Of a DNA stretch of 64,000 nt, positions 25,245-52,449 are shown piece after piece. How positions within the stretch are numbered: the stretch's first letter is position 1; each line of letters begins with the position of its first letter. The DNA is from Pyrenophora tritici-repentis (Eukaryota; Ascomycota; Dothideomycetes; Pleosporales; Pleosporaceae). The DNA is taken from assembly GCF_003171515.1 (NCBI RefSeq), contig NC_089395.1:2976001-3040000 (forward strand), read 5' to 3'. The notes beneath the pieces were generated by a model, which made no database searches, was not told where the DNA came from, and saw only the letters and a program-made list of their open reading frames with translations. The translations under genes and the position numbers were made by a program.

Positions 25245-25705
25245 ATGGACCCAATCCAAGCTGCAATTGCAGCATTTGAATCGCGAGAGCTAGGAGAACA
25301 AACCTCGTATACAAAAATTGCAGCTAAGTACAACATTGATCGATCAACACTTAGCCGAAGACACCAGGGCTCTTAAGCACCACAACAAGCCCGTACACTC
25401 TAGAAGCTAGTACTTAATCCACAACAAGAGCTAGAGCTTGTGAGATATATAAAAACGCTCACAGAGAGAGGCCTTCCTCCTACGCGAGAGATAATCAGGA
25501 ATTTCTCATCAGAAGTAGCCCATCAGCAGCTTAGCGAGAGCTAGGTTACTCGCTTTATCAATAGACATGTCAGATTGAGGCGAGGTTTTGCTCCATGATC
25601 GAGCCGATGGTGGTTGGGGAAGGACATAAGACCCCCAAACCAGGGCTAGCGCCGGGACTTAGCACTGCCAAGCCCGAGGCGAGGCCACCTCCCACTACGC
25701 TGGCA

Positions 25706-25850
25706 AATGGGTCGGGGTGTGGTTGGGGTTGGGTTAGAAATTTTGCGACCCCAACCCAGCCCCAACCCATTTGTCAGCGCCAAGCTTAGGGTTGGGTTGG
25801 GGTTGGGTTGGGGTCGCACGGACCATGGGTTAGGGTTGGGTTATAGTAAA
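25706..25850 (+). repeat. Left subterminal G-rich repeats of hAT-1
   Basis: The zone has repeated GGGTTGGG units with TTAGGGTTGGG variants, plus the motif GGTCGCAC. The reverse complement of the same motifs occurs at the right end (31385-31530, CGACCCCAACCC). Such subterminal repeats are usual transposase-binding sites in hATs. The telomere-like composition is unusual. Confidence 0.7.
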
Positions 25851-26007
25851 AAAATTGCAAGATGTATAATATAGATTTCAATAAAAGAAAAGTTTATATA
25901 GTATCACAGTAGATTAACACAGTGTAGCATTAACTAGTTTCATTTATAATATACAGAGGCTTCGCCAGCTAGCATTTAAGCAAGTGTATCTAGATATATC
26001 TTATAAT

Positions 26008-26580
26008 CTAGAGAAAAGCTAGTAACTCGCGCGCAAAGTAGCGCCTAGCCAATTGAGAATCCTTCTCTTGAATAGTAACCCTCTTTGCGTGAATAGCATT
26101 GATGTTGCAGTCTATAAAAGTTATTAAATGAAAAATAGTATAGGGTAGATAGACTATACCCTCAAAATAACCAACTAAGAAAGCTTCTGTAGCTTCCTGA
26201 AGAGCTTCGATTGCAGATCGTTGAAAGCGGATATCGGCCTTGTGCACCTGTGCAAATTCGCGCACTACGCGGGAAAAGGGGAGTTTTCGCAAGAGTAGTT
26301 CAAAACCTCTCTGGTATCTCTTGATTTCCCGTAATGCGACAGCTAAGCTAAATTAGAAAATAGCTGTGATAAACGACTGTGATAACCTACTGCCGGCCTT
26401 AAACTTGCGCTTCTTCTTAACAGCTACAGGTGCCTTTCGCGTAGACTTTCCTGCTACTTGACGTCTAGCCTTACTAGCAAGGGCCTTCTGAGCCGGCTTG
26501 CCGCCAGTAACTGTCTTGCCATCAGGACCACCCCGGCCGGCTTTACCGGTGACCTTAGGCCGTGGTTTTGTCCTTGCCAT
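26008..26580 (-). CDS. Histone H3-like variant carried by hAT-1
   Basis: There are three exons on the minus strand: 26580-26391, 26342-26160 and 26111-26008, with introns of 48 nt each, 158 residues in all. The fold region matches histone H3 throughout: [52 protein letters not shown], then [20 protein letters not shown] and SQLARR. The tail begins MARTK like H3 but is longer and diverged. The K27 region reads ASKARRQV instead of the usual ARKS, and the K9 region reads GKTVTGGK. The C-terminus is extended ([10 protein letters not shown]). Loop 1 and the alpha-2 helix are H3-like rather than CENP-A-like. Intact frames and both introns argue for a functional gene. Its position inside the element suggests capture and use by the transposon. 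Confidence 0.88.
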
Positions 26581-27090
26581 TGCGTAGTAGAGTAGATGAT
26601 GAACGTAGGCGACGTATGTGATTGATTACTGTGATAAATGTGGTCGACAATTAAGAAAGTAGTAGGCTGAAAGAGTTAGGTAGCTGGAAAGTTTGGGCGA
26701 CGGCAATTTCCCGATTTCCGCACTAGTAAAGGCAGCAGCGCACGGACTGCATGACGTAATTTGCTGTTTCACGATCGCATACAACCATTTCTGTTGCAAA
26801 ATCAGTAGCGAGCATATCATACAAACGTGTTAAACTGCTGTGATAAACGCCGAGCTCGCGCATGCGTGCAGCCCAAAAATGAAGGAATCATCGATGTGTT
26901 GATCATTTTGGGTAATTTCCGCGTTTTCGCGCTAGCGCAGGCAGCAGCGCACGGACCATTTCTAGGTGAGCATAATGCTGTCTACCCATTTCTCCAGCCC
27001 CTGACGCCCAGTAACTTCCAACACCTAATAACTCTCTCTACTACATTGAAAACACCCCATTTACAACAGCGCATTATCACAGTCCCCGCC
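26581..27090. promoter_or_regulatory. Divergent promoter region of hAT-1 with TTATCACAG motifs
   Basis: This 510-bp gap separates the H3-like gene (-) from the acidic-protein gene (+). It holds the nonamer TTATCACAG or its complement at 26629-26637, 26838-26846 and 27074-27082, the last only 8 nt before the ATG at 27091. The same motif occurs in most introns of the element. It could be a transcription-factor or transposase-binding site. The expected products are two divergent transcripts. Confidence 0.4.
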
Positions 27091-28294
27091 ATGCCTGTCG
27101 CGAAAGAGCAAGTCGGCGACGTACCTGAAGGCCTAGTTCCAGCCATCAAACTTGAACCTCCGCCTGGGTTCGAACAAGATGAGTGGGAGCAGCTTACCGA
27201 TGTAATAATCACAGCCATTTATCACAGCTTATGCTAATATAAGCAGGGATTTGCGTGTGAAGCTGACGAGATTGACGGTATCTTAGATCAAAGAGGTAGT
27301 GGGGGTTCACGAAAAGGCCGACCTATCAATTTGAGCGTCCCCTATACTGGCTCTCTGAGTGGTAGCGCCCGTGCTATTGCTCAACGTGAACGCAAAGCTC
27401 TTTTCGATAAAGAGGAGAAGGTACTTGAAAGCGTTAGAACAGCCGACCGCTCCGCGAAGTACCAACTGAAGAAATCGCTTTTGCAACAGCCTAAGTATAA
27501 ATTAGCAAATAGTGCTCGACAGGCTAAGCTGCTAGAGAAAGAGTGGGATATACTTTCAGAGAAGCGGTTTACCCAGAAAAAGTCTGGTAAGTTATCACAG
27601 CTGTTTATCATAGACATCTGCTAATAGACTATAGCTGAATGGCTAGAGACAAACCTAACTCATGTGCATCGTAAATGGGATGCGATCACTAAGCAGGTGG
27701 ATATGAGAAAACACGAGATCACGATTGCGAAAGTGCTTAGCAAAGATGACAAGCCCACCCATGACATTAGTGGTAGAGGAATAGCAAGAATTTACGGCTC
27801 AGGTGGTGTTTTGCAAAAGATTCTTCGAAAGACCTATCAAGAAGGATTAGCAAAGCTTAACAACAACGACTTTGAGAGCAAGGAGGCTAAGAGAGAGTTT
27901 GAGAAGTTCGTGGAGGAACTTACACCTGATGAGATGAAAGTCGTAACTGATAATGACTGGCAGTAAGTTTATCACATCCTTTTATCACAGAGATACTAAT
28001 ATAATAAGGCAACGGGAGCCACCTAGCATTCTCGACTTACTTGGTGACGCTGATATTGAGCTGGAGGGTGATAAGCCGTACGTTAAAGGTGACGATAGCG
28101 ATGAGTGTGAAGAAGAGGTTGACTATGACTCTGATCTTGAGGAGCATTTCAATTCACTTGAAGACGAGTACGAGGATGACGACCAGTGGGCTGCTGTACA
28201 GAAGCAGGCAGCGCTTGAGGAGTCTGAGGAATCTGAGGACTCTGAGTTTGAGGGGTTTCCGGATTCTGATGCCGCTTCTGAGTCTGATAATTAG
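27091..28294 (+). CDS. hAT-1 accessory protein of unknown function
   Basis: Four exons can be read: 27091-27201, 27247-27586, 27635-27962 and 28009-28294, giving 354 residues. Introns are 45-48 nt with clean GT-AG borders and CTAAT branch-like sites. I do not recognise the family. The middle is Lys/Arg-rich and helical (RAIAQRERKALFDKEEKVLE). A second region (ITKQVDMRKHEITIAKVLSK) is followed by a strongly acidic C-terminus (EECEEEVDYDSDLEEHF and many Glu/Asp/Ser). A basic-acidic layout would suit a chromatin or histone-binding role, and it sits next to a histone gene, but that is inference only. It is transcribed in the same direction as the transposase, which starts 350 bp downstream. Confidence 0.7.
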
Positions 28295-28643
28295 AGTTTT
28301 AGGCTAAGACACTTTCAAGCATTGAGGGATAGTAAGCAGTTATCACAACTAATTAACACGGATTATTGCGCCATATAATCTTAACTTAAGATTGTGATCT
28401 GTCATTTATGCAGATTAATATCCGTGCACTCCTGACGATCTCTGTGTTTACTATGAGGCATTAAAAATGATATTCCGCTAGTAATATGCCAAGGTTTCAA
28501 GTTAAATTACAGGCGTCATAGCGCAAGCAAAGCTGAGAGGAGCGTGAGAAGCCTTGAGTCCTACATCCAAACTTAAACTTCTCAACTTTTTCCTATTGTG
28601 TGCTACTACTATTAATGCCTTATTCTACTACTTTCTAGAAGCG

Positions 28644-31290
28644 ATGGACATAGCTGCACAGTCTATTGAGCTTATGCCTAATCCTACTAATATTGAATTT
28701 CCGGAGGACCTCAACTGTTTAAAAATCAATTCTCCACAGGTTACAAAGGGGGGTGACAGGAGAACGATTGGATTAGTGAAATATCCAAATAATCGTTTTC
28801 TGCAAGATTATAGTGTAAGTGAGATCTTAGGGACATGGACAGCGTCGTGGAGTAATACTAGCTGGGGTATAAACCCTAAAAATGATAACCCACGATGGAA
28901 CTCTCCTACTCGCTATGGCACAGTATGGTTACGATTTGGAGAAGCTGCTGAGCTTCGAACTGGCCACCCCTACGTGTTCTGCTACAACTGTAGTCTTGCA
29001 CTCCAGCATCCAAATCTAGGTGGTATTGGGACAAAGCACCTTATTACTCATCTTAAAACAAAAAGCTGTCGAAATGTCCTTACTCCTATTCATAATGAGG
29101 CAGACTTATCGGCCTCTACTCTATCCCAACGTCAACAAAGAAACAGTACTTCATCAATACCAGCTTACACTACTACTACCTTTGAAAAGGAGCTTGTACG
29201 GGTAGTAATCGACAGCAACTGGTCATTCCGAACAGTTGAACGACCATCTTTCCATCGATTTCTTCGGTTCCTTCGACCAGATACTGTGATAATTAGTCGT
29301 TGTAAATTCAAGACGATATTCAAGAGTCAACATGAGGAAGCAAAAAGGTCTATCCTTCGAGATCTTGGAAAATCAACAAAGATCTCAATCGCCTTAGATG
29401 CCTGGTCTGCAGCTAATCACCTCTGCTTTCTTGCGGTAAAGGGTTACTACATTAACAAAGACTGGAAACTTCAGGAAAAGCTACTTGACTTTCTCCCTAT
29501 GCGCGGCAGGCACACCGGTACTTCTATGGCAGACGAGGTACTGCATATTCTTCTGGATACAAAGACCAAAACCCAGCTTCTAGCTATTACTTGTGATAAC
29601 GCTAGTAACAATAGCGTACTTGCTCGCACTCTCCAGTCTAAACTCCAAGAAGTCGACATTCAGTGGAGTGCCAGAGAAAACACTATCCCTTGCCTTGCCC
29701 ATATTATCAACCTCGTTGTCCAGGATATTATCCAACACCTTCGGCTAGCAGCAACTACAGAGTTAGGAGCAAGGGATACCCTACAGAGACGTCATATACA
29801 GGACATTGAGACGCATATTTCAGTCCCAAATTCCCTTCGCAAGGTATTTCGCTTTTAACACATTCATTTATCACATACTAATAATAGACTAGATAAGGGC
29901 GATTTGTATCGCTATTGACGTATCACCTCAACGCTTTGAGCGGTTTATTGCGGTACAACAACATCTACCGCCAAAGGAGCGATTATCTGTTATCCGCGAC
30001 GTGAAAACCCGATGGAACTCAACATACGACATGTTAGAGCGCGCGCTCAAAATCCAAAAATATATTGATGAATGGCTTAAACAAGAAATCTTGCTAAGGC
30101 CAGGTAGTCACCTGGATAGCTCTCTAGACAACAATCAAATGGCTGAGATTGATTTCCGGGATCTTAAACGCCTCCGCTTATCTTCGACTGAGTGGCATCA
30201 TCTCGAACTCGTTACTGAGATGCTTAAACGGTTTAAAACGGCAACTAGCTTCCTCAGCCAGAACGAGAAGCCCCAGATTCAGTATATTTGGTTAATGTAC
30301 AATCGACTGTTTGATTTCTTGGACAAAATGTCAGAGGACCTAGATGAGGATGAAGAAAATCAAGATGATAGGGAATGGCTAGACGTAGTACGAGCTGCAG
30401 CTGACAGGGGTCGTCTAAAACTGAGCAAGTACTATTCGAAGACAGACGCAGAACGTGGGTTCTTGTTTAATTGTGCCACTATCCTTGATCCAACGCAGAA
30501 GCTTACAGCATATGAAGTATGATTATCACAGCTATTTATCACAGTCACGCTCTAATTACGCTTATAGGACGATTCATGGGAGCCACAGTACAAGCATCTC
30601 TACCGAGGCCAATTTCTTGCTTACCTTGATCGTTATGATAATACGGACGGGAGAGGTTCAACCCCAGGCTCTAGCATAGTCAAAAGGAGGTCACTTGGGA
30701 ATGAGTGGTTCAGAAAGCCAGCTCCTCCCCCTACATCAGCGTTAAACAGCTTTTCTTCCCAGAACTCTTCACTAGTAGAATCAGACAAGACAACTGGCCC
30801 AACCCGCCAAGAAGGAGAGTCCTACCTTAGTACTGCCTGTGTAATGACAGATGACTCTTTCGATATTCTAGAGTGGTGGAAGACGAACGAGCCTACCTAC
30901 CCACGACTATCCCAAGTGGCGAAGGATATACTAGCAATACCAATTGCTCAGGTTGGGGTTGAAAGAGTTTTCAATGTTGCTAAGGATGTTATTGGTAGTC
31001 GGAGGCACCGACTATCTGCCCGGACAATACAGCAGATAATGGTTCTTAAGGATACAATATCTCAAGAGGAAGAACAGGGTCTAGACTACCTAGTTGCTCA
31101 ATTAGGGGAGGATGGAGAGCCAATTGACGAGGTTAATGATCTTTTTGAGCTTCCAGCCTCGTTAGAGCATACCTTCGATATAGATGAGGAGAACCAGACT
31201 ACAGAAGAAGAGTCGGAGGAAGAGGTCCAGGAGGAGCGTCAATTGCCACCTCGAAAGCGCCAGCGTCCTCAGCGCTACCGTGATAATTAG
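28644..31290 (+). CDS. hAT-1 transposase
   Basis: Three exons (28644-29843, 29893-30516, 30568-31290) give 848 residues. An N-terminal BED-like zinc finger is visible near residues 94-135 (FCYNC ... HLITHLKTKSC). The RNase-H-like core carries ISIALDAWSA with the first Asp, CDNASNNSV with the second, and CLAHIINLVVQD. The C-terminal hAT dimerisation block is complete (YPRLSQVAKDILAIPIAQVG, VERVFNVAKDVIG, LSARTIQQIMVLKD). The tail is acidic and then basic. The ATG at 28644 is the first in a frame open from 28554. Both introns contain TTATCACA copies. No internal stop remains after splicing, so the enzyme may be active. Confidence 0.9.
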
Positions 31291-31384
31291 CTGTGTTAAT
31301 ATATCTCGTTTTATGTATCTACTATATCATCAACGTGTACACATTATCTTAATTAAGTGTTGTTCCGTTAAAGTACCCAAAAAA

Positions 31385-31530
31385 TATAACCCAACCCCAA
31401 CCCAACCCAGCCCAACCCAAGCCCAACCCTACCACTTGGTCTGTGCGACCCCAGCCCAGCCCTAACCCATGGTCTGTGCGACCCCAACCCAACCCCAACC
31501 CAAGACTGGGTATACCCAACCCATTTGCCA
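31385..31530 (-). repeat. Right subterminal G-rich repeats of hAT-1
   Basis: This is the mirror of the left end: CCCAACCC and CCCTAACCC arrays with two TGTGCGACCCCA motifs just inside the right inverted repeat. Confidence 0.7.
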
Positions 31531-31885
31531 GCGTACCTCCCACAGACAGAGCCGTAGACAGACACAGACAATACACACTTGATCCCATCCATAAAAAATC
31601 TGACAAGACACAAGATCCATCTCATCTTAAAGTAGACCAGCGCCATAGATCGTACGCGCCACCTAGCTAATTCTAAGTTAAAGTATAGACTCTACTTCGA
31701 GCTACTGCACTAAAAGATCACTAAATACCACCTTAAGGCTCAAGATATATATAATATAGATGAGAAGGGCTTCTTAATTAGCTTAATAGGCAGAAGCAAG
31801 AGGATATTTAGTAGGCGTTAATAGGAGAAGAAGGAGGTTCGAGCACCTCTCTAGGATAGATCACGTGAGTTTCTGACAATCCTGG

Positions 31886-32074
31886 TGTCAGATTTTTATG
31901 GATGGGATCAAGTGTGTATTCTCTGTGTCTGTCTACGGCTCTGTCTGTGGGAGGTGGCCTCGCCTCGGGCTTGGCAGTGCTAAGTCCCGGCGCTAGCCCT
32001 GGTTTGGGGGTCTCATGTCCTTCCCCAACCACCATCGGCTCGATCATGGAGCAAAACCTCGCCTCAATCTGACA
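31886..32074 (-). repeat. 3' LTR of the truncated Copia
   Basis: This 189-bp LTR starts TGTCAGATTGAGGCG and ends AATCTGACA on the minus strand. The purine run GCTGAGGGGGTG (32075-32086) directly precedes it in element orientation and serves as polypurine tract. It is nearly identical to the split solo LTR at 25568-31605. Confidence 0.88.
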
Positions 32075-32140: not shown

Positions 32141-34071
32141 CTATATAACAAGACTTTCCATCTTCTCCAGAATTTCCTCTGGATCTGCTTCCTCTACGTC
32201 TCGTTCCTTCACTTCAACCAGTCCGACCTGCGTCAAGAACTGGGGCCAGTTGTTGGCAGGCAGGGTCTTCGTGAAACCATCGGCGAGCATTTCGCCAGAC
32301 GGTACATACACGACTCTGATAGACTTTCGCTTTGCCTCTTGCCTCAGCCAGTGATTGTGGATGTCCACGTGACGGAGTTTCGTCGTCAGCTGAGAGATCT
32401 CCTCGTTGATCAGCCGGATCGTCTGCGTATTATCGCACTGTATCGTAATTGTCTTCTCCGTCAACTCTACCCGAAGCTCCTCTAGCAGCATCCGCACAAA
32501 CATGGACTCCTTAGCCACTTGCGATAGCGCGAGGAGTTCTGCTTCGGTCGTAGATGTCGTGATGGTATCTTGTTTGTTCGCCCTCCATGCGATCAGTCCT
32601 CCAAATAGCTTGATAACGTACCCTTGGGAGCTCTTGCGATCCGCGGTGTTGTCCGCAAAGGATGCATCGCTAGCTACTACCAATTGGTCGTCTCCTCCGA
32701 ATGATAAGGATAGAAGCTTGGTTGACTCCAGGTACAACAGCACTCGGTCAGCGGCTTCTTGATGTAGTGGACCAGGGTTTGTGAGGAACCGGGCGAGTCG
32801 TGATACTGGGAATGCGACATCGGGTCGGGTGTTGACGGCGGCGAAGAGTAACGATCCAATCTTGCGTTGATACAAGTTAATCTCTCCAGGAGTCGCCAAA
32901 CCCTCACGTGCAACTAGTTCGACTCTAGCCATTGGTGTGTTGTGTCGTTGGTCCTTGTTCGTTGCCAGCCGTGCAATCTTCTCAACATAAGCTTTCTGTG
33001 ACAGCCAGATCTTTCGCTTCTCTCGGTCCCGTATAACTTCTACTCCTAAAAACCACTGCAAATCCTTTCCTCCGGTCAGGTTGTATCGCTGTTTCAGTTC
33101 CTCTTCCACTTTCCGAGCTACTTCCGCGTGCCGTTTCGAAGAGGCAAGGATAATGTCATCAACATAAAAGAAGATGAACACTCCGTCTCGGATCATGCAG
33201 CAAGGTTCGTGGGGAACTGGCGAGAACCCGATTTCTAGAAGGAAGGCAGTGAAGTGTCTTTGCCAGAGCAATGGCGAGATCCGTAGGCCGTACAGCGCTT
33301 TGTTTAGTTGCAGTATTGTTCCCTGCTTCCTGTATCCTGGGGGCATCCGCATGTACACTGTTCGATCAATATCTGCGTTGACGAAGGCGTTCGATACGTC
33401 GTATTGCTTCAGCTCTAGGTCAAACCGGGCCGCAATCGACACTAGCATCCGAAACGATCTTCCGGCCAGTGTAGCAGCGTAGGTTTCTTGTGCGGTGACA
33501 TTTCGTTGCTGGTCTCCACGCACTACCAATCGCGCCTTACACTTCTGGAATCGATGGTGCTTGTCAAATTTGTAGGTGTATACCCACATTGAGTCCAGTA
33601 CCTGCTGGTCGGTCTTCCGAGCCGTCTTCGCCGGGACCTCTGACCAGGATCTGGTTTCCTTGTGGCTATGGAGATGTGTAATCTCAGCCTCTTTGAAAAA
33701 ATAGAACAACTCGTGATCCTCTCGCAGGCCGTTCGCTTGGGGAGGCGGTGGCAGCTGGCTGCGATGAGGCTTCTTGCCGTTTCGCATCATACGCTCAAGC
33801 TTTGCCTTGTCCAGTCGCTCTCCTGCCAAGTTTTGAACGTTTCCTGCCTTGGTGCCTGCCATAAAGGCGGCTGCCCATGGCTCCTTCAACATCCTGTGTT
33901 CCGGATGGAGGATACCACTCGCGAGACCTTGTTTGCCGTAGCTAGTGTCAAGACCTTGTTTCCCGTAGGCAGTCTCTTCGGATTGTAGGCCGTAGCCTCC
34001 GGCATCGCATTGTTCGCGTGGAACGCCTGCGGATAGACCATGTTCGCGCTGTGCGCCAGTCTGTACACCAT
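32141..34071 (-). pseudogene. Copia Pol fragment (reverse transcriptase-RNase H)
   Basis: The frame from 33892 to 32141 encodes 583 residues that cover a Ty1/Copia reverse transcriptase (VYTYKFDKHHRFQKCKARLV, YDVSNAFVNADID, LYGLRISPLLW, catalytic FFYVDDIILAS) and RNase H (VVASDASFADN, TTSTTEAELLAL, KLRHVDIHNHWLR, LADGFTKTLP). Upstream coding (HPEHRMLKEPWAAAF) continues towards 33930 before the frame becomes unclear near the hAT-2A junction. The visible part has no internal stop. Lack of integrase and gag makes it non-autonomous. Confidence 0.88.
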
Positions 34072-34334
34072 GCAGTGATCGGAATGGTCTGGTCTGACTT
34101 GGTCTTGGTCTGGTCTAGACCGCCAAGACTTGGTCTGGTCTGGCGATTTTTTGAGACCGTGGTCGGACCGGTCTAGATGATCGGACCGGTCCGGCTATAA
34201 ATAGGTCCACGTGACTAGATCTTAGACTAATCTAGCCAGAAAATTTAGCACAATATGAGTCATTAAGATCAAGGTAAGTCTTCTACTTACATAGAACAAT
34301 CAAGTCCTTAACAACCTACTTATATACTATTGTT

Positions 34335-37322: not shown

Positions 37323-40053
37323 CAGTGATCGGAATGGTCTGGTCTGGTCTGGTCTGAGGGTACAGACCAGACCAGACCAGGTGCTTACATAAGGACCGGT
37401 CCGACCAGACCGGTCCGACCAACAAGACCGCCAAGAATGAGGCTGAAGCAAAGAAGGAAGCCGAGGAAATGTGTTTTACTACTGACTGTCAATCTAGTCG
37501 TCTTCGTTCTCACTATCCTCGATATCGCTGTTCCCCTCAGCTTGGGGCTTTCCATACCAGGCCCGGAGACACTCGCACGCTTCTATAATATCTGCCTTCA
37601 GCCTACCACGGCGATCGACGATAGTAAGCTTCGCGCTACTAAAAAGACGTTCGCATTCATCCGACATAGGCGAGATCGCAAACATGTCTAGAGCGAAGCG
37701 AGCGAGATCTCGTTGGGAGTCGTAGCGAGATAGCCAGTACGCAATAGCCTCATTGCAACCTGCCTCTTCGTTATGAAGCCGGTCAGTAGAGATGTATTGT
37801 TCATACAAATCAGTTGTAGAAACTGGAGCGTCTATTCGAATGCGCTTATGTTCCCGCTGGCGATCAAATGCTGGGTCAGGATCTCTCTCCTTCCTGGCTG
37901 GTGGTGGCAGCATCTCGACAGGGTACCTTCCCTTATACTCTGTCTCCCAGAGATGCTTCACCGCTAATTGTGCGTTTTCAAACCACCTCTTCTTCTCTTC
38001 GTCGCCATGAAGAACCCACTCTTGCCTGAACCATCCCCACTTGCGATATGGATCAAGGATTTGAGCCGCATAATATGCCGGTGGAAGGTCAGTATCTTCA
38101 GGGAATCGATTTTGCCAATTCAGCTGCTGATTGTTATAGTACTCAACGCACTTTAACCAAGCAGCATCAGCGCAGCCTTGAAGGTACTTCCATGTAAAGT
38201 TGTTATCGTCCTCAGTGTGGATGTCGTGGTAGTGATCCTTCGTCTCGCTTATCTCCCGGAGAAGGCAGTCCAAAGTTGAAAACCAGTCCGCAAGTGACGT
38301 CTTCTTACCTTCAGAAAGCAAAGTTGCAGCATAGAAGTCTTTGAGAGCGAGTTCAATCTTTTCAAGCTCAAACCAGTGCTGTCCATCAAGCTTAAAGTTC
38401 GCGATCCCTACGGAGCCCTTTCCAGGTACATGACGAGCCGAGAAGAGCTCTAAACGTTCTCGAACATTTAATGCACGTGTAATCGAATAAAACCATGAGT
38501 TCCAGCGGGTCGAGTTGTTCTGGATAAGCTCAAGCCCGTCGAATTGCGAAAGATCTCCGCCGATAATAATTGTAGCAAACTCCTCACGCCGTTGTGGAGT
38601 AAGCCTGATGTATCGCACCAGGTTGTGAAGACGACCCAAACATCCGAACTTCTTCCAGAGCTCTTCCACCTTCGTATAGTCGCCACGTTGATGATGCTTC
38701 TCCAGCTTCGCAAGATACTTCTCACAGTTTCGCCCCATAAGGAACGCCTGGCAACAGAGGTTGATGACATGGCCCAAGCAACGCAGCCGGCGATGACGAC
38801 GTTGTTTTGACTTCATCCATGGGCAGAGATCCTTGAGTATAAACTCAACAGCGGTATCATTTGCCGAGGCATTATCCAGCATAAAGTATCCAATCTGATC
38901 TCCGCTAATGTCGTATTCTTCCAGCAATTCAAGGACCACCGATCCAAGATTCTCTCCAGTATGTTCGCCGTATATACGTCGCATACCTAAAGCGGTAACA
39001 CGTCGCATGCCGGTAGTATCAATCCACATAGCGACGACGCCTAGGATAGCGTAAGGGTTTGGTGAAGTCCAGAGATCAAAGGAGATAGAGATCCTACTCC
39101 GTGAATGGTGTAGGTCCTCCCTAAGCTGTTGCTTCTTCGATATGAATGCATTCATTACCCAGCTTCGGATAGTCTTCGCAGCCTTCGGGAGGTGGTTGAG
39201 TAGTGCCGGATTTAAAAAGAGGAGTAGTTCACGAAAGTACTGGTTCTCTAATTGAAAGAAGGCGATATGGCAGTACACAATCCAACGAATTAGAAGCTCT
39301 TTAAACTTCTCTACTGACTCCTTCTAGAAAAAGGTGCTGGAAGCAGCCCCATCCTTTTGCTGGTCGATTATAGACTTCCGTACAGAACCCTTTCGCTTGA
39401 TGCCACTCTGGGGATCAATCTGGTGCTTCTGTTCCAGGTGATTCCGGATCCTAGAAGTGCCATTGATGACAAACAACTCTTGCTTGCTCTTCCCAACCCT
39501 GCACTCATGGCAGTAATACACCTCTTTCTTATCGCTATCTCGAATGTATTGGAGTCCGTACTTCCAGATGTGTGATGTACCTTGACGGAAATCCTTCCTT
39601 GCAATTATTGCACGTTTCACGTACGTGATACCGCCCTGCACGAACTCATCTGGAGATTCGTGATATTGAATAGGAGTGGGTGATAGTATAGGGGTGGGTG
39701 ATGACGTGGGGATAGGAGATGGAGTAAGAGACGTTAAATCTAGTCTTATAATATTCGATGGGGACGGTGAGGTTGGTGTTGAAGGCTCCATAACAATAGT
39801 ATATAAGTAGGTTGTTAAGGACTTGATTGTTCTATGTAAGTAGAAGACTTACCTTGATCTTAATGACTCATATTGTGCTAAATTTTCTGGCTAGATTAGT
39901 CTAAGATCTAGTCACGTGGACCTATTTATAGCCGGACCGGTCCGATCATCTAGACCGGTCCGACCACGGTCTCAAAAAATCGCCAGACCAGACCAAGTCT
40001 TGGCGGTCTAGACCAGACCAAGACCAAGTCAGACCAGACCATTCCGATCACTG
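37323..40053 (-). mobile_element. hAT-2 copy B
   Basis: This 2,731-bp copy has the same inverted repeats as A and C and a perfect 8-bp duplication GGACAGCG (37315-37322 and 40054-40061). It is in opposite orientation to copy A. Confidence 0.93.
37494..39791 (-). pseudogene. hAT-2B transposase with one nonsense codon
   Basis: It matches copy C except for two visible substitutions close together. TTC TGG becomes TTC TAG (stop at 39324-39326), and a neighbouring ATC codon becomes ACC. The stop splits the 765-residue enzyme into a 155-residue BED-finger fragment and the about 600-residue catalytic part. Downstream ATGs could still give the catalytic part, but without the finger. Confidence 0.9.
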
Positions 40054-49718: not shown

Positions 49719-52449
49719 CAGTGATCGGAATGGTCTGGTCTGGTCTGGTCTGAGGGTACAGACCAGACCAGACCAGGTGCTTACATAAGGACCGGTCCGA
49801 CCAGACCGGTCCGACCAACAAGACCGCCAAGAATGAGGCTGAAGCAAAGAAGGAAGCCGAGGAAATGTGTTTTACTACTGACTGTCAATCTAGTCGTCTT
49901 CGTTCTCACTATCCTCGATATCGCTGTTCCCCTCAGCTTGGGGCTTTCCATACCAGGCCCGGAGACACTCGCACGCTTCTATAATATCTGCCTTCAGCCT
50001 ACCACGGCGATCGACGATAGTAAGCTTCGCGCTACTAAAAAGACGTTCGCATTCATCCGACATAGGCGAGATCGCAAACATGTCTAGAGCGAAGCGAGCG
50101 AGATCTCGTTGGGAGTCGTAGCGAGATAGCCAGTACGCAATAGCCTCATTGCAACCTGCCTCTTCGTTATGAAGCCGGTCAGTAGAGATGTATTGTTCAT
50201 ACAAATCAGTTGTAGAAACTGGAGCGTCTATTCGAATGCGCTTATGTTCCCGCTGGCGATCAAATGCTGGGTCAGGATCTCTCTCCTTCCTGGCTGGTGG
50301 TGGCAGCATCTCGACAGGGTACCTTCCCTTATACTCTGTCTCCCAGAGATGCTTCACCGCTAATTGTGCGTTTTCAAACCACCTCTTCTTCTCTTCGTCG
50401 CCATGAAGAACCCACTCTTGCCTGAACCATCCCCACTTGCGATATGGATCAAGGATTTGAGCCGCATAATATGCCGGTGGAAGGTCAGTATCTTCAGGGA
50501 ATCGATTTTGCCAATTCAGCTGCTGATTGTTATAGTACTCAACGCACTTTAACCAAGCAGCATCAGCGCAGCCTTGAAGGTACTTCCATGTAAAGTTGTT
50601 ATCGTCCTCAGTGTGGATGTCGTGGTAGTGATCCTTCGTCTCGCTTATCTCCCGGAGAAGGCAGTCCAAAGTTGAAAACCAGTCCGCAAGTGACGTCTTC
50701 TTACCTTCAGAAAGCAAAGTTGCAGCATAGAAGTCTTTGAGAGCGAGTTCAATCTTTTCAAGCTCAAACCAGTGCTGTCCATCAAGCTTAAAGTTCGCGA
50801 TCCCTACGGAGCCCTTTCCAGGTACATGACGAGCCGAGAAGAGCTCTAAACGTTCTCGAACATTTAATGCACGTGTAATCGAATAAAACCATGAGTTCCA
50901 GCGGGTCGAGTTGTTCTGGATAAGCTCAAGCCCGTCGAATTGCGAAAGATCTCCGCCGATAATAATTGTAGCAAACTCCTCACGCCGTTGTGGAGTAAGC
51001 CTGATGTATCGCACCAGGTTGTGAAGACGACCCAAACATCCGAACTTCTTCCAGAGCTCTTCCACCTTCGTATAGTCGCCACGTTGATGATGCTTCTCCA
51101 GCTTCGCAAGATACTTCTCACAGTTTCGCCCCATAAGGAACGCCTGGCAACAGAGGTTGATGACATGGCCCAAGCAACGCAGCCGGCGATGACGACGTTG
51201 TTTTGACTTCATCCATGGGCAGAGATCCTTGAGTATAAACTCAACAGCGGTATCATTTGCCGAGGCATTATCCAGCATAAAGTATCCAATCTGATCTCCG
51301 CTAATGTCGTATTCTTCCAGCAATTCAAGGACCACCGATCCAAGATTCTCTCCAGTATGTTCGCCGTATATACGTCGCATACCTAAAGCGGTAACACGTC
51401 GCATGCCGGTAGTATCAATCCACATAGCGACGACGCCTAGGATAGCGTAAGGGTTTGGTGAAGTCCAGAGATCAAAGGAGATAGAGATCCTACTCCGTGA
51501 ATGGTGTAGGTCCTCCCTAAGCTGTTGCTTCTTCGATATGAATGCATTCATTACCCAGCTTCGGATAGTCTTCGCAGCCTTCGGGAGGTGGTTGAGTAGT
51601 GCCGGATTTAAAAAGAGGAGTAGTTCACGAAAGTACTGGTTCTCTAATTGAAAGAAGGCGATATGGCAGTACACAATCCAACGAATTAGAAGCTCTTTAA
51701 ACTTCTCTACTGACTCCTTCCAGAAAAAGATGCTGGAAGCAGCCCCATCCTTTTGCTGGTCGATTATAGACTTCCGTACAGAACCCTTTCGCTTGATGCC
51801 ACTCTGGGGATCAATCTGGTGCTTCTGTTCCAGGTGATTCCGGATCCTAGAAGTGCCATTGATGACAAACAACTCTTGCTTGCTCTTCCCAACCCTGCAC
51901 TCATGGCAGTAATACACCTCTTTCTTATCGCTATCTCGAATGTATTGGAGTCCGTACTTCCAGATGTGTGATGTACCTTGACGGAAATCCTTCCTTGCAA
52001 TTATTGCACGTTTCACGTACGTGATACCGCCCTGCACGAACTCATCTGGAGATTCGTGATATTGAATAGGAGTGGGTGATAGTATAGGGGTGGGTGATGA
52101 CGTGGGGATAGGAGATGGAGTAAGAGACGTTAAATCTAGTCTTATAATATTCGATGGGGACGGTGAGGTTGGTGTTGAAGGCTCCATAACAATAGTATAT
52201 AAGTAGGTTGTTAAGGACTTGATTGTTCTATGTAAGTAGAAGACTTACCTTGATCTTAATGACTCATATTGTGCTAAATTTTCTGGCTAGATTAGTCTAA
52301 GATCTAGTCACGTGGACCTATTTATAGCCGGACCGGTCCGATCATCTAGACCGGTCCGACCACGGTCTCAAAAAATCGCCAGACCAGACCAAGTCTTGGC
52401 GGTCTAGACCAGACCAAGACCAAGTCAGACCAGACCATTCCGATCACTG
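49719..52449 (-). mobile_element. hAT-2 copy C, intact
   Basis: This 2,731-bp copy has perfect 8-bp duplications GTTCAACT (49711-49718 and 52450-52457), inserted near the start of LINE A ORF2. The inverted repeats and subterminal arrays are identical by eye to those of copy B. Confidence 0.94.
49890..52187 (-). CDS. hAT-2 transposase, full length
   Basis: This is 765 residues in one exon, starting MEPSTPTSPSPSNIIR. After a Ser/Thr/Pro-rich lead comes a BED zinc finger (residues about 75-125: YYCHECRVGK and HLEQKHQID). The RNase-H-like core follows, with ISISFDLWTSPNPYA (first Asp), FMLDNASANDTAVE (second Asp) and CLGHVINLCCQAF. The C-terminal hAT dimerisation domain is complete (YWLSRYDSQRDLARFALDMF, SDECERLFSSAKLTIVDRR). 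It is the only uninterrupted copy of three in the window and could supply enzyme to the other two. Confidence 0.93.
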   Translation of the reverse strand: MEPSTPTSPSPSNIIRLDLTSLTPSPIPTSSPTPILSPTPIQYHESPDEFVQGGITYVKRAIIARKDFRQGTSHIWKYGLQYIRDSDKKEVYYCHECRVGKSKQELFVINGTSRIRNHLEQKHQIDPQSGIKRKGSVRKSIIDQQKDGAASSIFFWKESVEKFKELLIRWIVYCHIAFFQLENQYFRELLLFLNPALLNHLPKAAKTIRSWVMNAFISKKQQLREDLHHSRSRISISFDLWTSPNPYAILGVVAMWIDTTGMRRVTALGMRRIYGEHTGENLGSVVLELLEEYDISGDQIGYFMLDNASANDTAVEFILKDLCPWMKSKQRRHRRLRCLGHVINLCCQAFLMGRNCEKYLAKLEKHHQRGDYTKVEELWKKFGCLGRLHNLVRYIRLTPQRREEFATIIIGGDLSQFDGLELIQNNSTRWNSWFYSITRALNVRERLELFSARHVPGKGSVGIANFKLDGQHWFELEKIELALKDFYAATLLSEGKKTSLADWFSTLDCLLREISETKDHYHDIHTEDDNNFTWKYLQGCADAAWLKCVEYYNNQQLNWQNRFPEDTDLPPAYYAAQILDPYRKWGWFRQEWVLHGDEEKKRWFENAQLAVKHLWETEYKGRYPVEMLPPPARKERDPDPAFDRQREHKRIRIDAPVSTTDLYEQYISTDRLHNEEAGCNEAIAYWLSRYDSQRDLARFALDMFAISPMSDECERLFSSAKLTIVDRRGRLKADIIEACECLRAWYGKPQAEGNSDIEDSENEDD

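What the first reader, a model, noticed from the sequence alone, without database searches (positions are those of the whole stretch)
25696..31535. A hAT transposon that carries its own spliced histone H3-like gene
Between perfect 8-bp duplications and matching inverted repeats there is a complete H3-fold gene with two phase-consistent introns, next to the transposase. Host-gene capture by DNA transposons is known, but I know of no fungal hAT with a histone. The frame is intact and both introns are clean, which suggests selection rather than passenger decay. A transposon-encoded histone could alter chromatin at new copies, resist silencing, or mark the element.
Basis: partly seen in the sequence, partly recalled or inferred. 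Interest (0 to 1): 0.88.

Follow-up and report, generated by a model that had tools for sequence, protein, structure and literature searches.

The report
Jumping gene carrying a histone gene
A fungal DNA transposon carries its own intact variant of the packaging protein histone H3; the element was published in 2013, but related proteins in other fungi suggest that the histone is an old, conserved part of this transposon line rather than a recent passenger.

Summary
It is not new: Manning et al. 2013 (PMC3538342) described this element and its short derivative in Pyrenophora tritici-repentis.

The genome holds 33 copies with both ends (11 long, 22 short), plus 8 loci of a 134-bp MITE. H3L is intact in 30 of 33. 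Near-identical copies say nothing about selection, but other species do. Eight H3L-type proteins (Pyrenophora, Paraphoma, Alternaria, Massariosphaeria, metagenomes; hand-picked) fall on one side of a 99/98 branch, away from H3 and CenH3. In P. teres, H3L and third-gene relatives bear consecutive locus tags. N110 and Y130, at H3-H3' pairing positions, occur in 8 of 8; K9 is absent in 6 of 8. This argues against a recent capture (PMC6710886).

A motif, TTATCACA, marks the element: 15 exact copies, 1 in the window's other 58 kb.

Best reading, inferred: a self-pairing H3 variant and an acidic partner shield element copies from silencing.

The parts
25688..25695 (.). left target-site duplication CCTCCCAC
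   Evidence: identical to 31536-31543
25696..25712 (+). left terminal inverted repeat TACGCTGGCAAATGGGT
   Evidence: exact in 33 of 33 left ends
26008..26111 (-). H3L exon 3 with stop
26112..26159 (-). H3L intron 2 (48 nt), the one intron of seven without the TTATCACA pair
26160..26342 (-). H3L exon 2 (most of the histone fold)
26343..26390 (-). H3L intron 1 (48 nt) with exact TTATCACAG-N3-TTTATCACAG
26391..26580 (-). H3L exon 1 (start codon, N-terminal tail)
27091..28294 (+). central gene, 354 aa, exons 27091-27201, 27247-27586, 27635-27962, 28009-28294; acidic C-terminal tail; relatives in other Pleosporales
27202..27246 (+). central intron 1, paired motif (1 mismatch)
27587..27634 (+). central intron 2, paired motif (1 mismatch)
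27963..28008 (+). central intron 3, paired motif (1 mismatch)
27633..30904 (.). segment missing from the short copies; junction at GACTAT, 6-bp ambiguity
   Evidence: match ends; junction string in 22 of 22 short copies
28644..31290 (+). hAT transposase gene, 848 aa, exons 28644-29843, 29893-30516, 30568-31290
29844..29892 (+). transposase intron 1, paired motif (3 mismatches)
30517..30567 (+). transposase intron 2, exact paired motif
31519..31535 (-). right terminal inverted repeat
31536..31543 (.). right target-site duplication CCTCCCAC
31886..32074 (-). uninterrupted copy of the target repeat (empty site)
   Evidence: joined flanks match at 98.4% across the junction

Best explanation
This is a full-length hAT-superfamily DNA transposon with three genes: transposase, an acidic, mainly helical protein of unknown function (the 'central ORF'), and H3L, a divergent histone H3. 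SHOWN by sequence: boundaries, gene structures, 33 copies, a 2.6-kb derivative that still carries H3L and has its own target-site duplications, a supported grouping of H3L-type proteins from several Pleosporales, and one P. teres pair of H3L and central relatives with consecutive locus tags. INFERRED: H3L is old, selected cargo of this transposon lineage, not a recent capture. INFERRED, most likely mechanism: H3L pairs with itself (changed H3-H3' interface) and with host H4, is delivered by the acidic central protein acting as a chaperone or targeting factor, and packs element copies in nucleosomes that lack the usual H3K9 site, so that silencing at the element is weakened. The TTATCACA motif in the element's non-coding parts may be the address. 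My confidence is about 0.97 in the element's identity, 0.75 in old conserved cargo and 0.35 in the anti-silencing mechanism; the number below is for old cargo plus some chromatin function.
For: Eight H3L-type rows form one side of a 99/98 branch against 8 H3s and the host CenH3. P0146 (transposase, 68%) and P0131 (central, 44%), both P. tritici-repentis, have the same longest contig (17060) and contig count (3), so probably lie together. Neutral drift to the P. teres identity leaves H3L open in 9.7% of 1000 simulated runs and the central gene in 0 of 200, indels not counted. Position 110 is N and 130 is Y in 8 of 8 H3L rows; in 96 other listed H3s that could be parsed, 110 is C or A in 96 and 130 is I, L or V in 95. 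Residues 109, 110, 126 and 130 were used to change H3-H3' pairing in yeast (PMC5626479 passages). K9 is absent in 6 of 8; K14 and K18 are kept in 8 of 8. The tail is acidic in 9 of 9 aligned central proteins. Of 158 genomic hits of the paired motif (up to 2 mismatches), 153 lie in the 34 fetched copies. No H3L outside the element was found in this genome.
Against: No DNA of other species was available: no dN/dS, and no proof that the Paraphoma, Alternaria, Massariosphaeria or metagenome proteins lie in transposons. No P. teres transposase relative was among the 50 hits, and a second P. teres central relative (CFE70_001257, P0128) has no H3L neighbour among the listed hits. The 8 tree rows were picked by eye, which favours grouping; only 120 of 7925 H3 hits were listed. 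Of 107 other listed H3s, 11 could not be parsed, and one of these (P0105, an odd C-terminus) also reads HYY at 129-131. In Dhillon 2019 the P. tritici-repentis H3L grouped nearest the original H3s, in a tree without the relatives used here. Databases prefer intact frames. The tail alignment around K9 is gapped. Recent copies show neutral-looking changes in all three genes. The central protein has no Pfam, PDB or fold match, so 'chaperone' rests on acidity alone. One long copy (L027) carries RIP-type change, so protection is not complete.
Confidence: 0.5

Rival explanations
1. Recent transduplication: a host-like H3 sequence was captured once in P. tritici-repentis and is a passenger multiplied by the transposon (the view of Dhillon et al. 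2019).
For: Manning 2013 found 26 nearly identical copies and argued for recent expansion; Dhillon 2019 calls it a recent and independent event with capture of a transcript, and places H3L nearest the original H3s. Within-genome changes look neutral.
Against: H3L has two introns at places not shared with host H3 (one intron, in the codon of Q19, read by eye) or host CenH3. H3L groups with H3L-type proteins of other genera, not with host H3. A P. teres relative at 69% has a tag next to that of a central relative at 66%. Recent spread of the copies is real but is a different event from capture.
Confidence: 0.15
2. A host H3-variant gene exists in some Pleosporales and was captured by this transposon; the relatives in other species are host genes.
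For: The relatives are known here only as proteins; no transposase relative from P. teres was listed.
Against: No H3L outside the element was found in this genome, and the P. teres protein has the locus tag next to a relative of the element's own central gene.
Confidence: 0.2
3. H3L acts on the whole genome in trans (histone dose or poisoned nucleosomes), with no targeting to the element.
For: 30 intact genes in this assembly; ESTs reported for H3L (PMC3538342).
Against: Changed H3-H3' positions predict little mixing with host H3; no phenotype was found in the papers seen.
Confidence: 0.1
4. H3L or the central protein is an accessory factor of transposition itself, for example bridging the ends.
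For: Both travel with the transposase; accessory genes are known in other multi-gene DNA transposons (recalled).
Against: 134-bp MITEs with nearly the same ends have perfect TSDs without carrying genes; supply in trans would still be possible.
Confidence: 0.1

Closest known systems
H3L transduplication element of Pyrenophora tritici-repentis (Manning et al. 2013, PMC3538342)
   Same: Same species by protein identity (P0121, P0143 and P0002 are named P. tritici-repentis, 99-100%), same three genes, long and short forms, and the same gactat junction. This is that element.
   Different: That paper gives ~5.6 kb x10 and ~2.3 kb x16; this assembly has 5.84-5.88 kb x11 (one with RIP-type change) and ~2.6 kb x22 (three interrupted; two on contig C18 may be redundant). 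The paper left the origin of H3L open and the central ORF unknown, and suggested drift.
H3-carrying hAT of Pseudocercospora fijiensis and relatives (Dhillon et al. 2019, PMC6710886)
   Same: hAT element with 8-bp TSD and an H3-like sequence.
   Different: About 9.5 kb, H3 without introns, hundreds of copies inactivated by RIP; the authors report no similarity between those hAT elements and the P. tritici-repentis one.
VANDAL/VANC anti-silencing transposons of Arabidopsis (PMC5735166)
   Same: Element-specific short motif concentrated in introns, intergenic and terminal non-coding parts, beside a non-transposase gene.
   Different: Not a hAT; VANC binding was shown by ChIP and EMSA (passages), nothing of the kind here; no histone gene was mentioned in the passages seen.
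Designed H3X/H3Y obligate pairs (PMC5626479)
   Same: Changes at H3 positions 109, 110 and 130 of the H3-H3' interface.
   Different: Designed heterodimers; here the changes are natural, L126 is kept, and the pairing outcome is only predicted.

Membership tests
hAT superfamily | 8-bp target-site duplication | tested here: met
   8/8 in 23 of 33 copies; of the 10 misses 4 are two reciprocal swaps, 2 (L043, L045) share the same flanks, 4 (L021, L022, L025, L048) are unexplained
hAT superfamily | short terminal inverted repeats | tested here: met
   17 bp, 66 matches in 33 pairs
hAT superfamily | C-terminal hAT dimerisation domain | tested here: met
   PF05699 E 6.2e-21
hAT superfamily | DDE catalytic triad | not tested
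   no alignment to a solved hAT transposase was made
Manning 2013 H3L element | three genes plus a short form joined at gactat | tested here: met
   gene models; junction in 22 of 22 short copies
P. fijiensis H3-hAT (Dhillon 2019) | captured H3 without introns, copies RIP-inactivated | tested here: not met
   two introns; H3L intact in 30 of 33
canonical histone H3 | canonical tail and C-terminus (K9; C/A110, I/L130, R131) | tested here: not met
   N110, Y130, Y/F131 in 8 of 8 H3L rows; K9 absent in 6 of 8
CenH3/CENP-A | groups with CenH3; longer loop 1 | tested here: not met
   tree separates H3L from the host CenH3 (99/98); no loop-1 insertion against H3 in P0001
VANC-type anti-silencing | motif dense in non-coding parts of the element and rare elsewhere | tested here: met
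   15 exact TTATCACA in the element, 13 of them non-coding, 1 in the other 58,160 bp of the window; 153 of 158 genomic paired hits in fetched copies
VANC-type anti-silencing | element protein binds the motif and removes silencing | not testable with these tools
   needs ChIP, EMSA and chromatin profiling
Introner-like elements | near-identical introns spread among host genes | tested here: not met
   only the 22-bp pair is shared, by 6 of 7 introns, and it is almost confined to this element

The most novel reading that the evidence does not exclude
A transposon lineage of Pleosporales has kept, across genera, a private chromatin kit: a self-pairing H3 variant without the usual H3K9 site, a dedicated acidic partner protein, and a private DNA or RNA address motif repeated through the element's non-coding parts. 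Together they would make the element's own chromatin distinct from the host's and hard to silence. From memory, no transposon is known to build its own nucleosomes, though some giant viruses do.
Probability: 0.27. Interest if true: 0.88.

Novelty: already known. Interest (0 to 1): 0.5.

Why it matters
The element itself is on record. That turns a curiosity into a testable question: can a transposon build its own nucleosomes to escape host silencing?

Tried and rejected
Introner-like origin of the introns: only a 22-bp pair is shared, so not a clean case. The sense orientation of the motif in all 9 exact intron hits also fits copying of introns within the element, or an RNA-level signal, so the DNA-address reading is not forced.

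dN/dS between copies: no power, as recent copies are nearly identical. The one 95% copy (L027) has 217 changes in the three gene stretches; 100 are C>T (80 before A) and 84 are G>A (68 after T), against 15 reverse transitions. That is RIP-type change, so it was not used for selection.

Scans of viral contigs with P0133 and P0067 and of prokaryote genome contigs with P0121 gave no relatives. Rfam at gathering thresholds: 0 matches in the window.

Papers: searches bear on transposon-borne histones. I judged the listings by title and abstract start, and one search listed 20 of 33, so I can say only that I saw no third paper with this element as its subject. Reviews such as PMC8616336 were not opened. 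PMC5915480 and PMC9594970 contain the word histone 0 times. Read: section 20 part 1 of 2 of PMC3538342 and passages; part 1 of 7 of PMC6710886 and passages; passages of PMC5735166 and PMC5626479; abstract and outline of PMC10398659.

Rows left out: five further P. tritici-repentis H3L entries (P0002, P0032, P0035, P0041, P0053; near-identical, truncated or frame-shifted models) from the alignment and tree; L050, a long-form fragment without ends, and L064, a decayed end, from the copy counts.
Full report
WHAT IS THERE. The element runs from 25696 to 31535 (5840 bp) between two copies of CCTCCCAC, and both ends read TACGCTGGCAAATGGGT inwards. Joining the flanks recreates a sequence that exists uninterrupted at 32074-31886 of the same window (98.4% over 190 bp, across the junction). 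Three spliced genes fill it. H3L lies on the minus strand, 26580 to 26008: 158 aa, two introns of 48 nt. A central gene, 27091-28294, has four exons and 354 aa. The transposase, 28644-31290, has three exons and 848 aa and a hAT dimerisation domain, PF05699, E 6.2e-21. Splice sites are my reading of the sequence; they are not from RNA data here.

COPIES. The genome (40.9 Mb, 41 contigs) has 33 copies with both ends: 11 long and 22 short, three of the short ones interrupted. All 22 short copies share one junction, and 15 of 22 have a perfect 8-bp TSD. L037 and L042 share theirs, so these are 14 different sites; the short form therefore moves as such. Of all 33, the TSD is 8/8 in 23. The 10 misses include two reciprocal swaps (L030/L036; L047/L049), as inversion by recombination between inverted copies would leave. 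L043 and L045 show the same flanking bases, and contig C18 repeats the C7 arrangement, so the two C18 copies may be assembly redundancy. L021, L022, L025 and L048 are unexplained. H3L is intact in 30 of 33: L021 has a frameshift, L027 stop codons, L049 an insertion. Among the 10 long copies without RIP-type change, 1 H3L, 2 central and 5 transposase frames are broken; the genes differ in length, and I do not take this as evidence of selection. Distinct coding changes are 1 silent/2 replacement for H3L (short copies included), 1/6 for the central gene and 1/8, one of them a stop, for the transposase, which looks neutral. Eight loci hold a 134-bp MITE whose end differs by one base; 7 of 8 are complete and those 7 have perfect TSDs.

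ALREADY PUBLISHED. Protein matches at 99-100% are named Pyrenophora tritici-repentis. Manning et al. [quoted passage not shown] They left the origin of H3L open, found it neither H3 nor CenH3, and suggested drift. Dhillon et al. 2019 called it a recent and independent event and placed it nearest the original H3s (passages).

WHAT THE RELATIVES ADD. In this genome the only other matches are the canonical H3 beside H4 (L051) and CenH3 (L052); by eye, their introns lie elsewhere than those of H3L. A protein search gave 7925 hits among the 8000 candidates scored, 120 listed. From these I picked by eye eight H3L-type proteins: P. tritici-repentis, P. teres (2), Paraphoma, Alternaria, Massariosphaeria and two metagenomes. 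A later signature scan of the 120 listed hits found 8 with the C-terminal signature, seven of my rows plus the near-identical P0002; it missed P0054 because that has Y at 113. In a tree of the globular domains (17 rows: 8 H3L, 8 H3, 1 CenH3) the H3L rows are one side of a branch with 99/98 support. The rows were hand-picked, so the test is not blind, but it speaks against a recent capture from host H3.

The central gene has 22 database hits, among them P. teres (65%), P. seminiperda (50%), Boeremia, Exserohilum and Parastagonospora. Another P. teres central relative, CFE70_001257, has no such neighbour in the lists. In P. tritici-repentis a 68% transposase (P0146) and a 44% central protein (P0131) share longest contig length 17060 and probably lie together. 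No P. teres transposase was among the 50 hits. If drift were free, H3L would have stayed open to this divergence in 9.7% of 1000 simulated runs and the central gene in 0 of 200, without indels; databases prefer open frames, which weakens this.

RESIDUES. Against host H3, the 8 H3L rows have N at 110 and Y at 130 in 8 of 8, I at 109 in 6 of 8, and keep L126 in 8 of 8. Of 107 other listed hits 96 could be parsed: 110 is C or A in 96, and 130 is I, L or V in 95. Of the 11 unparsed, P0105 has an odd C-terminus that also reads HYY at 129-131. L109, A110, L126 and L130 are the cluster used to design H3s that refuse to homodimerise (PMC5626479 passages). K14 and K18 are kept in 8 of 8, K9 is absent in 6 of 8, K4 is R in both P. 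teres rows, and K27 is lost only in P. tritici-repentis. The tail alignment is gapped, so K9 is the softer claim.

CENTRAL PROTEIN. 9 of 9 aligned members have a strongly acidic last 95 residues (net -23 to -38). The model is mainly helical, of middling confidence, without a known fold. An acidic partner of a basic histone suggests a chaperone; that is inference only.

MOTIF. TTATCACAG-N3-TTTATCACAG occurs, with up to 3 mismatches, 11 times in the window, all inside the element, against 0.03 expected. Six of 7 introns carry it, 4 to 11 nt after their start. Exact TTATCACA, both strands: 15 in the element (9 intron, 4 intergenic, 2 exon), 1 elsewhere in the window. Genome-wide, 153 of 158 paired hits with up to 2 mismatches lie in the 34 fetched copies; the reversed control pattern gave 1. 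All 9 exact intron hits point in the sense direction of their gene. That fits a DNA address of the VANC type (PMC5735166 passages), an RNA signal, or copied introns.

MECHANISM AND VERDICT. The element is known. The best-supported addition is that H3L is old, conserved cargo. The mechanism I hold most likely is a self-pairing H3 variant, brought by the central protein, that makes element chromatin poor in H3K9 methylation. Each step after sequence conservation is inferred.

Noticed in passing
25901-31299: Paired motif TTATCACAG-N3-TTTATCACAG (up to 3 mismatches) in 6 of 7 introns and in other non-coding parts; 11 hits in the window, all inside the element.
   Followed up: yes
L054 (about 1039, minus strand) and L055 (about 1015, plus strand): Two of the 5 genomic hits of the paired motif outside the fetched copies; the two loci resemble each other and, read by eye, lie beside a zinc-knuckle-like frame, perhaps another transposon.
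   Followed up: partly
L056-L063: 134-bp hairpin MITEs with TIR TACGCTGGTAAATGGGT, one base from the element's TIR; 7 of 8 complete, those 7 with perfect 8-bp TSDs.
   Followed up: yes
L027 (C1:7525660-7531691): The one long copy 5% diverged; 80 of 100 C>T lie before A and 68 of 84 G>A after T, as RIP leaves.
   Followed up: partly
L030/L036 and L047/L049: Reciprocally exchanged TSDs between inverted copies on one contig, pointing to inversions by recombination between copies.
   Followed up: partly
L053 (C7:2006000-2011500): Lone relict of the central gene (71% DNA identity over 328 columns) whose intron 2 stretch still has a TTATTACAG-like motif.
   Followed up: partly
38739-39521 and 51135-51917 (minus strand): Two stretches of another multi-copy family with weak (24-25%) similarity to the transposase, converted from genome coordinates.
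   Followed up: no
32141-34114 (minus strand): 657-codon frame that reads like a Copia-type reverse transcriptase by eye, beside the insertion.
   Followed up: no
C18:6354-12499 and C7:1128523-1134668: Contig C18 repeats the inverted pair of short copies on C7 with the same flanking bases; possible assembly redundancy.
   Followed up: no
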